Source: a virus. Taken from it: 31,921 bases of DNA. The translations under genes were made by a program, and so were the position numbers. Shown here piece after piece: positions 7,507 to 17,247 of the stretch. The notes under the pieces were generated by a model, which was not told where the DNA came from, searched no databases, and saw only the letters and a program-made list of their open reading frames with translations. Within the stretch, counting starts at the first letter, position 1; the number at the start of each line of letters is the position of its first letter. The DNA lies in the IMG/VR virus record IMGVR_UViG_3300042453_001505, positions 1 to 31,921 of that record. The stretch is one strand, 5' to 3'.

Positions 7507-9837
7507 ATGATGACAGAAAACAGCAACTCCCAAATTCATAGGGAAGCCAAGAGTCAGCTTGCGCGTCTCATGGCAAACGAAAACCTGACCGTCGAGCATC
7601 GTGCGGTTCGCACGGCGTATTTTGATGTTGAGAAGCGTCTTCTTGTCCTTCCAATTTGGAAGAACATGACTGGCAACATCTATGATACGCTCGTCGGACA
7701 CGAGGTCGGTCACGCTCTTGACACTCCGCCGTCAGCGGATATTCTAAAGAATGCCATCGAATCGATTGATGCCAAGAACCCTCGCGGTTCCAAGATGTTT
7801 TTGAATGTGATCGAAGACGGTCGCATTGAGAAGCTTGTGCGTCGTCGTTATCCTGGTATGCGTCGTTCCTTCTCCCTTGGCTATAAGGATTTGCTGGATC
7901 GCAATTTCTTTGGCACCGCTGGACGTAGCATCAAGTCTTACGGTCTGATTGACCGCATCAATCTTCATTTGAAGCTTGGTTCTGCAATCATCATCGACTT
8001 CACTCCGGCTGAAAAGAAGCTGGTTGAAATGGCTGAGAATTGCGAAAGCTTTGACGACGTTGTCAAGGCTGCTCAGGCAATCTATACTTATTGTAAGGAA
8101 CATAAGGAAGATCAGCCTGAGAATGACGAGGAAAACTATTACGACGATTCGGAGTTCTATCCCGATGAGAGTGGTGAGTTTTCCATGCCGTATGAAGACG
8201 AGTCTGGCGAGGAGTCTGGTGAAGAATCTGATGAGGTTGACGATTCTTCTTCGGAAAATTCCGATGACTCAGATGAATCCGACAAGTCTGACGGCAAGAC
8301 TTCGGATGAAGGTTCTGCTGGTGAATCCGGCAAGGACGATGAAGAGGAGGGTTCTTCTGATTCCGAAGATGATGATTCGGAGACCAGTTCTTCCGACGAA
8401 GATGAAATTTCCGATCAGGAGACCAAGTCTCCTCTTGATGAGGGATTTAGACAGAATCCGACTTCCGAGACTCAGGAGTCTTGGGAATCCAAGAAGGATG
8501 AACTCGTTAGGGAAGGGACCAAGGGCTATGTTTATGTAAACATTCCCGAGGTCAACGGTCATAATTGGATTGTGCCTTACAAGCAGGTTCATGATGGTGG
8601 CAATGGCTTCGTCGGTCTTTCTGAGGTGGCTCGTCGCGGCGACATATATGGATTTATTCCTGGTCATACCAAGGAGCAGGTTCTTGCAGAGTGCATCAAG
8701 TTCCGTTCGGAGAACGCTGCGGTAATTTCATACATGGTCAAGGAATTTGAGATGCGAAAGGCGGCTGATACCTATTCTCGCTCGTCAATTTCCAAGACTG
8801 GTGTGATCAATACCAACAAGCTGCATACCTACAAGTATAATGATGACCTGTTCAAGCGCATCACCAATGTGCCTACCGGAAAGAATCATGGACTTGTCAT
8901 GTTCATTGATTGGTCTGGATCGATGACAACTTCAATTTCTGGATTGATTGAGCAGCTTGTAAATATGGTCATGTTCTGCAAGCGTGTTCAGATTCCGTTT
9001 GACGTTTATGCATTTTCAAATGTATATGGACATAAGAATATGTCCGCCGAAGAGATCAGTGCTATCGAAGCACGTCAGCATTCATACAAGGATGGTGATT
9101 TGCTTATCAATTCAAGCTTGTCTCTGCTTCAGTTGCTGTCTTCAAGGATGAAGGAAGGCGAGTTCAATCAGGCTATTGGTAATCTTCTGATGCTATGCAA
9201 GTTCTTTAGGAAAATGAATGCTGCTGTAGATATCAGGCCGTTTACTTTCGGTTCTACTCCTTTGGATGCGACTATTGTTTGTGCGACAAGCATTGTCAAT
9301 GCTTTTCGTGCGAAGCATAAGCTTCAGATCGTCAACACCGTCATTCTTACCGATGGCGAGGATACAGACAGTATTGAGGTTAGGAACAAGGGCTATAATC
9401 CATATACTCAAGATGTGGTTCTTCGTGATACCGTTACCAAGAGTGAAGCTGTTGTCGATAATCTGTGGGATAAATCTGCCACAACGGCAATCTTCTTGAA
9501 TCGTCTGCGCGAAAGAACTGGAACGAATGTGATTGGATACTATATAAATTCCGGTCGAGTGAATTCCATGTCTTTCTCACAGTATTCAGCAGATCCAAAT
9601 CAGGTCGAGAAGCTGTATAAGGACTATGTAAAGAACAAGTACATTGAAGTTACCAATCTTGGTTATTCGGTGTACTACATTCTCAAGGCTGAGGAGATGA
9701 ACATTCAGACCACCGAACTTAATCTTGGTAAGGCAACTACAGCAAAGAGCATTGCGAAGGTCTTTGCCAAGTATTCCAAGAACAAGTTGGACAATCGTAT
9801 TGTTCTTTCCCGGTTCATTGAGAAAATTAGTGCTTGA
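7507..9837 (+). CDS. CobT-like VWA protein with N-terminal HExxH metal site and acidic linker
   Basis: About 776 residues. The N-terminal part has HEVGH (65-69), the zinc-protease-type HExxH, followed by a conserved-looking NVIEDGRIE segment that could supply a further ligand. Residues about 200-320 form a very acidic Ser/Asp/Glu-rich linker, as in the CobT cobaltochelatase subunit. The C-terminal part is a von Willebrand A domain with MIDAS motif DWSGSM near 467. It sits directly upstream of a CobS-like AAA+ gene, the standard pairing of VWA proteins with MoxR/CobS ATPases. No CobN is present, so cobalt chelation is not implied; a chaperone- or peptidase-like machine is as likely. Starts at 7507/7510 lack a good ribosome site. 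An in-frame ATG at 7450 would lie upstream of the promoter at 7472. Codon use is GC-richer than in neighbouring genes. Confidence 0.8.
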   Translation: MMTENSNSQIHREAKSQLARLMANENLTVEHRAVRTAYFDVEKRLLVLPIWKNMTGNIYDTLVGHEVGHALDTPPSADILKNAIESIDAKNPRGSKMFLNVIEDGRIEKLVRRRYPGMRRSFSLGYKDLLDRNFFGTAGRSIKSYGLIDRINLHLKLGSAIIIDFTPAEKKLVEMAENCESFDDVVKAAQAIYTYCKEHKEDQPENDEENYYDDSEFYPDESGEFSMPYEDESGEESGEESDEVDDSSSENSDDSDESDKSDGKTSDEGSAGESGKDDEEEGSSDSEDDDSETSSSDEDEISDQETKSPLDEGFRQNPTSETQESWESKKDELVREGTKGYVYVNIPEVNGHNWIVPYKQVHDGGNGFVGLSEVARRGDIYGFIPGHTKEQVLAECIKFRSENAAVISYMVKEFEMRKAADTYSRSSISKTGVINTNKLHTYKYNDDLFKRITNVPTGKNHGLVMFIDWSGSMTTSISGLIEQLVNMVMFCKRVQIPFDVYAFSNVYGHKNMSAEEISAIEARQHSYKDGDLLINSSLSLLQLLSSRMKEGEFNQAIGNLLMLCKFFRKMNAAVDIRPFTFGSTPLDATIVCATSIVNAFRAKHKLQIVNTVILTDGEDTDSIEVRNKGYNPYTQDVVLRDTVTKSEAVVDNLWDKSATTAIFLNRLRERTGTNVIGYYINSGRVNSMSFSQYSADPNQVEKLYKDYVKNKYIEVTNLGYSVYYILKAEEMNIQTTELNLGKATTAKSIAKVFAKYSKNKLDNRIVLSRFIEKISA

Positions 9838-9862
9838 TTATACCAATCATATATCGTATACT
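9834..9862 (+). promoter_or_regulatory. Sigma70-like promoter before the CobS-like gene
   Basis: TTGATT (9834-9839), a 17 bp spacer and TATACT (9857-9862), in the 50 bp gap between the VWA and AAA+ genes. It would start transcription about 20 nt before the ATG at 9888. The two partner genes could therefore be expressed separately as well as together. Confidence 0.5.
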
Positions 9863-9887
9863 AAATTATAACTTGATAGAGGAAAAT

Positions 9888-11081
9888 ATGTCGCTTACGG
9901 AAAAGCAGATTGCTTTCATTCGACTGGCTAACCAGAACGGGTATATGACTACCATTTCTCGCAAGGATGCCAAGGAACTTTGCCGCGCTCATAACTTCAA
10001 GTGGCCTAGGTGGATCGCGATTGACGATCAGTATCGTCACTCTCGCGGTGTCTATAAACTTCCCAGCATTGGTGCTGTAGAAACTCCTATACCTTCTGTT
10101 TCGGAAACTCCTATGCCACAGGCAACTACGATGAATCTTCAGACTATTGGTACAAACATCTCGGAGTCTTTGATTCCGACTCCCAATAAGAATTACGTTC
10201 CCTTTGGTAACTTCTCGGATGTTGAGTCGATCATCTCATCCAAGATGTTCTATCCAGTCTATATCACTGGTCTGTCTGGCAACGGCAAGACCATGATGGT
10301 CGAGCAGGCTTGTGCCAAGGCTCGCCGCGAGATGGTTCGCGTGAACATCACGGCTGAGACTGACGAGGACGACCTGATTGGTGGTTTCCGTCTTGTCGAT
10401 GGTCAGACTGTGTGGCATAATGGTCCCGTTGTGATGGCGATGGAGCGTGGTGCGGTTCTTCTTCTGGACGAGGTTGACCTTGGCACTATCAAGCTTATGT
10501 GTCTTCAGCCCGTGCTGGAAGGCAAGTCGGTCTTCATCAAGAAGATCAACAAGCTGGTTCAGCCTGCTCGCGGTTTTACCGTAATCGCTACTGCAAATAC
10601 CAAGGGTCGTGGTTCTGACGATGGCCGCTTCATCGGCACTAACGTCATGAACGAGGCGTTTCTGGAACGTTTCTCTATCACGATGGAGCAGGAGTATCCG
10701 CCTGCCGTAACCGAGAAGAAGATTCTACATAATCTTCTGGATCGTACGGAGGATGACAAGACCTTTGTTGAGCTGCTTATCAAGTGGGCAGATGCAATTC
10801 GTCGTACCTATTACGATGGCGGCACGACCGAGATTATTTCCACTCGTCGTCTTGTGCATATTTGCGACGCATACAAGATCTTCAGTCGTGATCGCATGAA
10901 GGCAATTCGTCTGTGTCTAAATCGTTTTGATGTTGACACCAAGACTTCGTTCATGGATCTGTATACAAAGATTGATGCAGAGGCTAATGCTCCTGTTGTT
11001 GCTAATACGGAAACGTCTACAGCAACGACGAATGCATCTCTTGAAGATAAGATCAAGCAGGCTAACGAGATTGTGTTTTAA
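9888..11081 (+). CDS. cobS: CobS/MoxR-type AAA+ ATPase
   Basis: A 397-residue ATPase of the MoxR/CobS class. Walker A GLSGNGKT is near 127, Walker B AVLLLDEVD near 187-195, sensor 1 IATANT further on, and FLERF carries the likely arginine-finger region. The first 60 residues (an EKQIAFIRLANQNGY start) form a separate small domain, then a Pro/Thr-rich linker leads to the AAA+ core. Genes called cobS are widespread in T4-like cyanophages. The partner here is the VWA/HExxH protein immediately upstream. The start at ATG 9888 is fixed by AGAGGA 4 nt upstream; the longer TTG-initiated reading from 9834 runs through the promoter. It is followed by a consensus promoter and a terminator hairpin. Confidence 0.88.
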   Translation: MSLTEKQIAFIRLANQNGYMTTISRKDAKELCRAHNFKWPRWIAIDDQYRHSRGVYKLPSIGAVETPIPSVSETPMPQATTMNLQTIGTNISESLIPTPNKNYVPFGNFSDVESIISSKMFYPVYITGLSGNGKTMMVEQACAKARREMVRVNITAETDEDDLIGGFRLVDGQTVWHNGPVVMAMERGAVLLLDEVDLGTIKLMCLQPVLEGKSVFIKKINKLVQPARGFTVIATANTKGRGSDDGRFIGTNVMNEAFLERFSITMEQEYPPAVTEKKILHNLLDRTEDDKTFVELLIKWADAIRRTYYDGGTTEIISTRRLVHICDAYKIFSRDRMKAIRLCLNRFDVDTKTSFMDLYTKIDAEANAPVVANTETSTATTNASLEDKIKQANEIVF

Positions 11082-11084
11082 TGC

Positions 11085-11113
11085 TTGACAAACCAATTCG
11101 GTATTGATATAAT
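11085..11113 (+). promoter_or_regulatory. Perfect-consensus sigma70 promoter
   Basis: TTGACA (11085-11090), exactly 17 bp, then TATAAT (11108-11113). Every hexamer base matches consensus. The predicted start near 11120 is only about 4 nt before a strong terminator-like hairpin, which is unexpected for a promoter meant to express the gene at 11192. Confidence 0.85.
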
Positions 11114-11123
11114 ACTGAATAAT

Positions 11124-11160
11124 GGAGCGGCGTATTTGGTTGCTCGCCGCTCCGTTTTTT
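11124..11160 (+). terminator. Strong intrinsic terminator at the 5' end of a predicted transcript
   Basis: GGAGCGGCG (11124-11132) pairs with CGCCGCTCC (11145-11153), a 9 bp GC-rich stem with a 12 nt loop, followed by G and six T (11155-11160). It would end transcripts from the CobS-like gene, and also those from the promoter at 11085 after about 40 nt. Confidence 0.85.
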
Positions 11161-11191
11161 CGATGCAACCTTTTGTTATGGAGTGTTATAT

Positions 11192-11461
11192 ATGGCTAAG
11201 ATTTCTGCTAAGGCTCGTATGCTTTCGGTTCTGAAGGGCAACTCATCGTACAATACTTTTTCGGTTGCACAGGGTCGCAATCGTTTTGGTATCAAGAACG
11301 TTGCGCAGCGCATTCATGAGCTGCGTCAGGACGGTCACGCAATCTACACGAACCTGAAGCGTCGTGGCGATGGCAGCACTGTTCGCGTTTATCGTCTTGG
11401 TACTCCTACCAAGGCCATGAAGGCTGCTGCTCGCAAGACCAAGACTCGTCGTTCTGCCTGA
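11192..11461 (+). CDS. Small basic winged-helix-like DNA-binding protein
   Basis: An 89-residue basic protein. The middle (about 22-57) reads like a helix-turn-helix: FSVAQGRNRFGIKNVAQRIH, then ELRQDGHAIYTN, then a beta-wing-like GDGSTVRVYRLG. The C-terminus is a Lys/Arg/Ala-rich tail. Similar short proteins occur in many phages, and I read it as a putative transcriptional or nucleoid-type DNA binder. ATG 11192 has GGAG 8 nt upstream; an in-frame GTG at 11183 overlaps that site. The gene stands alone between two strong terminators (11124 and 11485), so it is a single-gene unit. GC-rich codon use suggests strong expression. Confidence 0.8.
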   Translation: MAKISAKARMLSVLKGNSSYNTFSVAQGRNRFGIKNVAQRIHELRQDGHAIYTNLKRRGDGSTVRVYRLGTPTKAMKAAARKTKTRRSA

Positions 11462-11484: not shown

Positions 11485-11519
11485 GAAGGGGAAGAGAAAT
11501 CTTCCCCTTCTTTCTATTT
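11485..11519 (+). terminator. Intrinsic terminator with GAAA tetraloop
   Basis: GAAGGGGAAGA (11485-11495) and TCTTCCCCTTC (11500-11510) form a perfect 11 bp stem closed by a GAAA tetraloop, followed by a T-rich run. A smaller hairpin ATAGG/CCTAT (11469-11483) precedes it. It ends the message of the winged-helix gene. Confidence 0.92.
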
Positions 11520-16176: not shown

Positions 16177-16722
16177 ATGGCAATCAAATTGAAATTCCAC
16201 AAGCTACATCCCGAAGCACAAGCACCTGTATATTCAACAACAGATGCCGCTTGTTTTGACATCTCCCTATGCACATATGGAAAGATGGCATTCAAAGGTT
16301 ATGATGAGTCGGGTAAAGAGTTTACAAGACTATTGACTACTGATGGTGGCGTTCTATTATGTCCAAAAGATAGAGTTCTTGCACCAACTGGACTCATTTT
16401 CGACATTCCTAAAGAATACTCTATTCGCATTCACCCTCGTTCTGGTCTTTCTTTGAAAGAGGGATTGACACTTGCAAATGCACAAGGTGTCATTGATTCA
16501 GATTATATGGAAGAAACATTTGTCATGCTAACGAATCTTTCTTCAAGAAATATCAACATCCCTAATCTAAGCAGAATTTGTCAAGGTGAACTTGTAAAGA
16601 ACAATAGAGCCTCTTTCGAGGAGATTAAGGAAAGACCGACGCGCGATAATACAAATCGCAAAGGTGGATTCGGTTCTACGGGCACGAAAGCCCTTGACAA
16701 ACCGTCAGCAAATACTATATAA
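16177..16722 (+). CDS. dut: dUTP diphosphatase (trimeric dUTPase)
   Basis: Hydrolyses dUTP to dUMP and pyrophosphate, keeping uracil out of DNA and feeding dTMP synthesis. All five family motifs are seen: DAACFDI (23-29), PRSG (87-90), GVIDSDY (104-110), RICQ (133-136) and GGFGSTG (163-169). At 181 residues it is longer than the usual 150, because of an insertion around 34-60 and a short C-terminal extension after motif 5. The start has GGAG 8 nt upstream. The last 29 nt encode the promoter at 16694, so the C-terminal extension and a regulatory site share sequence. Confidence 0.93.
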   Translation: MAIKLKFHKLHPEAQAPVYSTTDAACFDISLCTYGKMAFKGYDESGKEFTRLLTTDGGVLLCPKDRVLAPTGLIFDIPKEYSIRIHPRSGLSLKEGLTLANAQGVIDSDYMEETFVMLTNLSSRNINIPNLSRICQGELVKNNRASFEEIKERPTRDNTNRKGGFGSTGTKALDKPSANTI

Positions 16723-16723
16723 T
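16694..16723 (+). promoter_or_regulatory. Consensus sigma70 promoter overlapping the end of dUTPase
   Basis: TTGACA (16694-16699), 18 bp, then TATAAT (16718-16723). Both hexamers are perfect. The -35 is preceded by C (CTTGAC, favoured in alphaproteobacteria). The start near 16730 falls inside or at the edge of a hairpin (16727-16754), the same layout as at 11085. Confidence 0.75.
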
Positions 16724-16726
16724 ACA

Positions 16727-16758
16727 CATACTAGAGCCATACTGGGCTAGTATGTTTT
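16727..16758 (+). terminator. Hairpin with T-tract directly downstream of a promoter
   Basis: CATACTAG (16727-16734) pairs with CTAGTATG (16747-16754), and TTTT follows. The stem is AT-rich, so it is a moderate terminator at best. It may end the regA-dut message or act as a 5' stem-loop of the Hsp20 message. Confidence 0.55.
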
Positions 16759-16782
16759 CAACTTGCTTAAAAGGAGTTAAAC

Positions 16783-17247
16783 ATGACATTCGCATACGGA
16801 CGTAATCTGCTTCCATCAACTGTTGGGTTTGATAGACTTCTATCTACCCTGGACGAAGCACTAAATATTCCCGACAAGGTTCTAACGTCATTTCCACCAT
16901 ACAATATCGCAAAGATTAGCGAAGATAAGTATGTGATTGAGCTAGCAGTTGCTGGTTTCAAGAGAGAAGAAATCGACATTACCTTGGAAGACAACAAACT
17001 AACAGTTCAAGGGAACGCAAAGAAAGATGAGGACAACGGCAAAACTTATTACCATCGTGGCATTGCTCTTCGTAATTTTACCCGTGTATTTACTCTCGCT
17101 GACACGGTAGTAGTAAAGTCCGCTGATCTTGTTGACGGAATGCTTGTGATTGAACTTGAAAATGTGATTCCGGAAAATAAGAAGCCTCGCAAGATTCTTC
17201 TGAACGACAAGAACTTTACAACCGAAAAAGTTCTCGCTTCAAAATAA
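16783..17247 (+). CDS. hsp20: Small heat-shock protein Hsp20
   Basis: A 154-residue alpha-crystallin-type chaperone. The core domain runs from about 40 to 130: PPYNIAKISEDKYVIELAVAG, an FKREEIDITLEDNKLTVQG strand pair, then YYHRGIALRNFTRVFTL with the conserved R-F-R/L pattern, and DGMLVIELE near the end. Hsp20 genes are a hallmark of T4-like cyanophages and related marine phages, where they are thought to protect phage proteins or virion assembly. AAGGAG lies 7 nt before the ATG. The gene forms its own unit between the promoter at 16694 and the terminator at 17288. Confidence 0.93.
   Translation: MTFAYGRNLLPSTVGFDRLLSTLDEALNIPDKVLTSFPPYNIAKISEDKYVIELAVAGFKREEIDITLEDNKLTVQGNAKKDEDNGKTYYHRGIALRNFTRVFTLADTVVVKSADLVDGMLVIELENVIPENKKPRKILLNDKNFTTEKVLASK

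What the first reader, a model, noticed from the sequence alone, without database searches (positions are those of the whole stretch)
11085..11160. Perfect promoter firing into a terminator 4 nt downstream
TTGACA-17-TATAAT is followed, from about +4, by a 9 bp GC-rich hairpin and six T. Transcripts should end after about 40 nt, giving a short RNA, unless terminated by design as an attenuator or overridden by an antiterminator. It may also be a shared site that stops CobS-operon transcription while launching the winged-helix gene at 11192.
Basis: partly seen in the sequence, partly recalled or inferred. Interest (0 to 1): 0.6.

Follow-up and report, generated by a model that had tools for sequence, protein, structure and literature searches.

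The report
Promoter feeding a conserved leader pseudoknot
A perfect phage promoter runs straight into a hairpin that looks like a stop signal, but comparison with about a hundred related leaders shows the hairpin is one half of a conserved RNA knot just ahead of a small regulator gene, probably controlling that gene's messenger RNA.

Summary
In detail: TTGACA-17-TATAAT (11085-11113), then, from about +2, a 12-bp stem (11121-11132/11145-11156) and T6 (11155-11160). The reading as a promoter wasted on a terminator does not hold up. In relatives from uncultured T4-like phages, the hairpin loop pairs with a stretch shortly before the Shine-Dalgarno of the downstream winged-helix gene (window: GGTTGC 11138-11143 with GCAACC 11165-11170). 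This makes an H-type pseudoknot. Stem 2 was present in 46/46 leaders of the main set (1.8% with shuffled sequence), in 27 different sequences, with compensatory changes in both stems. The detector fired on 31 winged-helix starts and only 6 others among 417. The T-run is not conserved: runs of at least 5 T follow stem 1 in 6/73 leaders, against 36/73 after the gene's own terminator. Stem pairing extends upstream of the predicted start site, and several leaders keep the knot without a promoter, so cobS read-through RNA must carry it too. No Rfam family matches. Best explanation: a new cis-regulatory pseudoknot leader of a phage winged-helix gene with its promoter embedded at its 5' edge, comparable in layout to the T4 gene 32 operator. 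Its regulator, and any autoregulation, are inferred.

The parts
11085..11113 (+). sigma70-type promoter TTGACA-17-TATAAT
   Evidence: same position and near-perfect in most relatives
11096..11120 (+). inverted repeat ATTCGGTATT-GATAT-AATACTGAAT over the -10 (P0): operator, or hairpin in cobS read-through RNA
   Evidence: folds as hairpin in 11085-11165; counterpart palindromes in relatives
11121..11132 (+). stem 1 (S1), 5' arm AATGGAGCGGCG
   Evidence: covariation, broad set
11133..11144 (+). loop of S1; contains stem 2 5' strand GGTTGC at 11138-11143
   Evidence: invariant in window clade; pairing covaries in other clades
11145..11156 (+). stem 1 (S1), 3' arm CGCCGCTCCGTT
11155..11160 (+). 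T6 run: possible terminator tract and part of pseudoknot loop 3; not conserved
11165..11170 (+). stem 2 (S2), 3' strand GCAACC
11180..11183 (+). Shine-Dalgarno GGAG, 9 nt after S2
   Evidence: spacing conserved
11192..11461 (+). 89-aa winged-helix protein (HTH_39, phrog_4973), gene downstream of the leader
   Evidence: fold H-E-H-H-E-E
11485..11510 (+). terminator-like hairpin after the winged-helix gene
9834..11081 (+). upstream CobS-like AAA+ ATPase gene (phrog_249), source of possible read-through RNA

Best explanation
The hairpin is stem 1 of an H-type RNA pseudoknot that forms the 5' leader of the small winged-helix gene at 11192. Stem 1 is 12 bp. Stem 2 is 6 bp, between the 3' part of the loop (GGTTGC) and GCAACC, which ends 9 nt before the Shine-Dalgarno. 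The consensus promoter at its 5' edge is the gene's own promoter; in other lineages it sits inside the 5' arm or has been lost, and then the knot is carried by cobS read-through mRNA. Shown by comparison: both stems are conserved by compensatory change and are specific to this gene. Inferred: the knot at the edge of the ribosome's footprint sets translation and/or lifetime of the winged-helix mRNA, as a translational operator or 5' stabiliser. It is most likely controlled by a phage protein, with the winged-helix protein itself the first candidate. The T6 run may add partial termination in the window's lineage only.
For: Stem 2 anchored beside stem 1 in 46/46 leaders, against 1.8% with shuffled and 18% with swapped downstream sequence; 27 distinct stem-2 sequences; stem 1 500/506 standard pairs. 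Free search: 84% against 1.6% shuffled and 12% swapped. Within-subclade covariation: A2 100% paired with 13 double-change cells, 0/500 shuffles; A4 99.4% paired with 30 double-change cells, 6 pairs in stem 2, 0/500; window clade A5 97.9% paired with 4 double-change stem-1 pairs. Constant geometry: L2 0-1 nt, S2 mostly 6-9 bp, SD usually 7-12 nt downstream. Detector hits 31 winged-helix starts and 6 others among 417 SD-preceded starts. L280 and L281 proteins differ by one residue, yet stem 1 has three double compensatory changes. The knot is kept when the promoter is absent and across a tRNA-like gene inserted in loop 3. T-run conserved after the gene's terminator but not after stem 1.
Against: In the window's own clade stem 2 is invariant, so its pairing is supported only by other clades. 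The 46-leader set left out three leaders with unusual geometry, and many leaders are related. A second winged-helix clade (L099-L155, not next to cobS where checked) has the promoter and a short hairpin but no stem 2, so the knot is not essential to the gene family. No transcript, TSS, probing or translation data exist. No cultured phage carries the gene.
Confidence: 0.72

Rival explanations
1. Attenuator or short-RNA producer: most transcripts from the promoter stop at T6 after about 40 nt, and an antiterminator (or the short RNA itself) has the function.
For: Stable hairpin plus T6 about 40 nt after the predicted start. T-run also present in L005, L009, L010 and clade-2 leaders such as L101.
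Against: T-run lost in L011, L012, L014 and L098, which keep stem, loop and complement. Only 6/73 leaders have a run of at least 5 T, against 36/73 at the downstream terminator. Does not explain stem 2, which lies beyond the termination point.
Confidence: 0.12
2. Hairpin is mainly the terminator of the cobS operon, overlapping the next promoter; the reader's shared stop/start site.
For: Located 40 nt after the cobS stop. S1 pairing extends upstream of the predicted start (136/139 cells paired), so S1 matters in RNA that enters from cobS. In w2 leaders own-promoter RNA would lack the outer stem, which could let it escape termination.
Against: Poor T-runs in most leaders. Promoterless leaders would then hardly express the gene. 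Stem 2 unexplained.
Confidence: 0.12
3. The inverted repeats are DNA operators for a dimeric repressor such as the winged-helix protein, not RNA structure.
For: P0 palindrome overlaps the -10 in the window clade and the -35/-10 spacer in w2. The winged-helix fold is typical of DNA-binding regulators.
Against: L046 and L189 proteins are 94% identical yet P0, S1 and S2 sequences all differ while pairing is kept. L280 and L281 differ by one residue with three compensatory S1 changes. P0 itself remains open as an operator.
Confidence: 0.04

Closest known systems
T4/T2/RB69 gene 32 translational operator (leader pseudoknot; PMC535899, PMC3014915)
   Same: Phage mRNA leader; H-type pseudoknot 5' of the Shine-Dalgarno of a nucleic-acid-binding protein gene; T4-like phages.
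   Different: Different gene (winged helix, not gp32). T4 knot lies 67 nt upstream of the start codon and nucleates gp32 binding through UUAAA repeats; here the knot ends 9 nt before the SD, stem 1 is mostly 11-17 bp, a promoter overlaps its 5' edge, and no binding protein is known.
PeSL, promoter-early stem-loop cassettes of T4-like phages (named in PMC4503421; primary papers not held, definition partly from memory)
   Same: Strong sigma70-like promoter next to a stem-loop between genes of a T4-like phage.
   Different: PeSLs are dense repeated cassettes that mediate gene shuffling. This leader is single-copy in two large relatives, tied to one gene, and its stem-loop is part of a pseudoknot.
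manA and wcaG RNA motifs of cyanophages (Rfam; PMC2864571)
   Same: Structured 5' UTR motifs found in T4-like phages of cyanobacteria.
   Different: No Rfam family, these included, matches the leader above its gathering score, and permissive searches gave only chance-level matches; different downstream genes.
Intrinsic terminator
   Same: GC-rich stem followed by T6 in the window.
   Different: 12-nt loop; T-run not conserved; loop conserved and paired downstream.

Membership tests
H-type RNA pseudoknot | Loop of stem 1 pairs with sequence 3' of stem 1, forming stem 2 | tested here: met
   46/46 anchored stem 2 versus 1.8% shuffled; GGTTGC/GCAACC in window
H-type RNA pseudoknot | Both stems supported by compensatory changes | tested here: met
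   (both stems); in the window clade only stem 1 varies
H-type RNA pseudoknot | Stems abut, with 0-1 nt between them | tested here: met
   L2 is 0-1 nt in all leaders (geometry only, no 3D data)
T4 gene 32-type translational operator | Pseudoknot in the leader, 5' of the ribosome-binding site | tested here: met
   spacing to SD
T4 gene 32-type translational operator | Controls gene 32 (ssDNA-binding protein) | tested here: not met
   Downstream gene is a winged-helix protein
T4 gene 32-type translational operator | Encoded protein binds the knot and represses its own translation | not testable with these tools
   needs binding and reporter assays
Intrinsic terminator / attenuator | GC-rich stem followed by a T-run in this sequence | tested here: met
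Intrinsic terminator / attenuator | T-run conserved in relatives that keep the stem | tested here: not met
   6/73 versus 36/73 at the downstream terminator; lost within the window clade
Intrinsic terminator / attenuator | RNA 3' ends at the T-run | not testable with these tools
   no transcript data
PeSL cassette | Early-type promoter joined to a stem-loop | tested here: met
   (timing of the promoter not tested)
PeSL cassette | Repeated copies within one phage genome | tested here: not met
   single copy in G001 and G002
Rfam families (release 15) | Match above the gathering score | tested here: not met

The most novel reading that the evidence does not exclude
A new phage cis-regulatory RNA in which promoter and pseudoknot share the same bases, so a transcript's origin decides its fold. 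RNA entering from cobS carries the full stem 1; RNA from the embedded promoter starts inside or just at the 5' arm and carries a shorter or complete knot depending on lineage. The leader would thus be an origin-sensing switch for a small winged-helix regulator, possibly autogenously controlled.
Probability: 0.25. Interest if true: 0.75.

Novelty: new variant of a known kind. Interest (0 to 1): 0.58.

Why it matters
[quoted passage not shown] A second, unrelated, widespread leader pseudoknot in T4-like phages, with an overlapping promoter and strong covariation, would give a second system for that question and a clear reporter test. It also warns that a promoter followed by a hairpin and T-run need not be an attenuator.

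Tried and rejected
Hairpin as intrinsic terminator or attenuator: T-run not conserved. PeSL membership: single copy. Known RNA family: none in Rfam at the gathering threshold, chance-level only at permissive thresholds. DNA operator as the whole explanation: near-identical proteins with different, still-paired arms. Covariance model R1 built from one subclade: recovered its own subclade and part of the rest, but also hit the downstream terminator, so its alignment A3 was not used. Cultured relatives: none by tblastn with three winged-helix types; none confirmed in bacterial and archaeal genomes. P0 as a universal feature: significant in 15 of 43 promoters only, and the scan did not capture the window's own repeat, which runs past the -10. 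Other perfect promoters in five relatives do not show such a leader by eye. Structure match of the winged-helix model: generic only, no E below 0.001. The primary PeSL papers were not held.

Full report
Observation. The window has TTGACA 11085-11090, a 17-nt spacer and TATAAT 11108-11113 (12/12), a rare exact match (two in the record, none for the reversed control). The expected start is 11119-11121. A 12-bp stem (11121-11132 with 11145-11156, loop 11133-11144) follows at once, then T6 (11155-11160). RNA 11120-11160 folds at -21.3 kcal/mol, z -4.7, 0/200 shuffles. GGAG 11180-11183 and ATG 11192 begin an 89-aa winged-helix protein (PF14090 26.9 bits against a cut-off of 21.3; phrog_4973). Upstream is a CobS-like ATPase (phrog_249) whose cultured relatives are Kyanoviridae: cyanophages and Pelagibacter phage HTVC008M. 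The finding's observation is therefore confirmed.

The loop contains GGTTGC (11138-11143), complementary to GCAACC (11165-11170), which ends 9 nt before the Shine-Dalgarno. I fetched relatives of CobS and of the winged-helix protein and collected 141 distinct leaders. In the window's clade the stem changes while the loop and its complement stay fixed, and the T-run decays: L014 ATTTCTTTT, L098 ATTCCCTC. In more distant leaders next to cobS (winged-helix proteins about 25-28% identical to the window's) the loop and the pre-Shine-Dalgarno stretch are different sequences but still complementary.

Statistics. In 49 leaders of types w1, w2, w7 and one w5, a free search found strong stem 2 in 84%, against 12% when the downstream part is swapped between leaders and 1.6% when it is shuffled. 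With stem 2 required to abut stem 1, 46/46 leaders have it, against 18% swapped and 1.8% shuffled. There are 27 distinct stem-2 sequences, every stem-2 position uses four or more pair types, and stem 1 is 500/506 standard pairs. The 46 leave out three leaders of unusual geometry (L034, L036, L316), each of which also shows a stem 2. The swap control is inflated because related leaders share stem-2 sequences. On alignments within subclades: A2 100% paired, 5 pairs and 13 cells changed on both sides, 0/500 shuffles for cells; A4 99.4% paired, 7 pairs and 30 cells, six of the pairs in stem 2, 0/500; A5, the window clade, 97.9% paired, four double-change pairs in stem 1, stem 2 invariant. So the window's own stem 2 rests on the other clades. 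Applied to 417 Shine-Dalgarno-preceded starts, the detector fired on 31 winged-helix starts and 6 others. The cobS loci without the winged-helix gene that were in that test (L031, L041, L075) gave no hit.

RNA or DNA. L280 and L281 encode proteins differing at one aligned residue, but stem 1 differs by three double compensatory changes. L046 and L189 proteins are 94% identical and their palindromes, stem 1 and stem 2 are all different but still paired. A sequence-specific DNA operator would not drift this way; base pairing would. In L038, L039, L043 and L309 a tRNA-like gene is inserted between stem 1 and the 3' strand of stem 2, and stem 2 is kept.

Which transcripts carry it. In the window's clade stem 1 starts 2-7 nt after the -10, so the promoter's own RNA holds the core stem and stem 2. 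In w2 it starts between 3 nt before and 3 nt after the end of the -10. There, 136/139 cells between -10 and +1 still pair, with mixed pair types, though they are not in the promoter's own RNA if the start is canonical. In w3 the -10 itself lies in stem 1. Leaders such as L016, L033, L037, L045, L054, L060, L067, L230 and L253 keep both stems with no good promoter. Selection on full stem 1 therefore acts most simply in cobS read-through RNA. In L281 the promoter's own RNA would fold stem 2 as a plain hairpin.

Not chiefly a terminator. A run of at least 5 T follows stem 1 in 6/73 leaders but follows the hairpin after the winged-helix gene in 36/73 of the same loci (see for examples). The window is one of the few with T6, so partial termination there is possible and unmeasured.

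A second group. Winged-helix leaders L099-L155, from phages where the upstream gene is not cobS (checked in L102), have the promoter and a short hairpin at the start site but no stem 2. The promoter-plus-hairpin layout is thus wider than the pseudoknot.

Mechanism. Shown by comparison: the pseudoknot, its link to the winged-helix gene, and its independence from the promoter and the T-run. Inferred: control of translation or mRNA lifetime, because the knot lies at the edge of the ribosome footprint. Speculative: autogenous control by the winged-helix protein (fold model H-E-H-H-E-E, mean pLDDT 74; PDB matches generic).

Comparison. The T4 gene 32 leader pseudoknot is the nearest by layout (PMC535899, PMC3014915), but the gene, the distance to the start codon, the stem sizes and the promoter overlap differ. 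PeSL cassettes (PMC4503421 cites the primary papers, which were not held) share promoter plus stem-loop, but this leader is single-copy in two large relatives. No Rfam family matches. Novelty: a new variant of a known kind, phage leader pseudoknots.

Limits. No transcript, probing or expression data; start sites are predicted from spacing; no cultured phage carries the gene in the collection searched.

Noticed in passing
window 16694-16760: A second consensus promoter (TTGACA-18-TATAAT) runs into a hairpin (ACATACTAG/CTAGTATGT) and TTTT at its start site, in the leader of the Hsp20 gene at 16783; no stem 2 was seen by eye.
   Followed up: partly
L189 1730-1790; L026 5507-5550; hairpin after the winged-helix gene: The terminator-like hairpin after the winged-helix gene carries a conserved CTATATA in its loop or stem in many w2 relatives; it might be a phage promoter for the next gene.
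   Followed up: no
L342 (G004:C1:93380-93408): A perfect -35/-10 palindrome (TTGACAGGGGCCTCGGCCCCTGTTATAAT) precedes an ORF that looks gp32-like by eye, so the promoter palindrome is not unique to the winged-helix gene.
   Followed up: partly
L038 2347-2418; L039 5230-5301; L043 5230-5301; L309 398-469: A tRNA-like gene with a two-base anticodon call (cc) lies inside loop 3 of the pseudoknot.
   Followed up: partly
L099-L155 leaders: Winged-helix leaders of a second clade have the promoter and a short hairpin right at the start site without stem 2; several also have a palindrome over the -35.
   Followed up: partly
L331 and L341: cobS has its own consensus promoter with a short plain leader in some relatives, a possible source of read-through RNA.
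   Followed up: no
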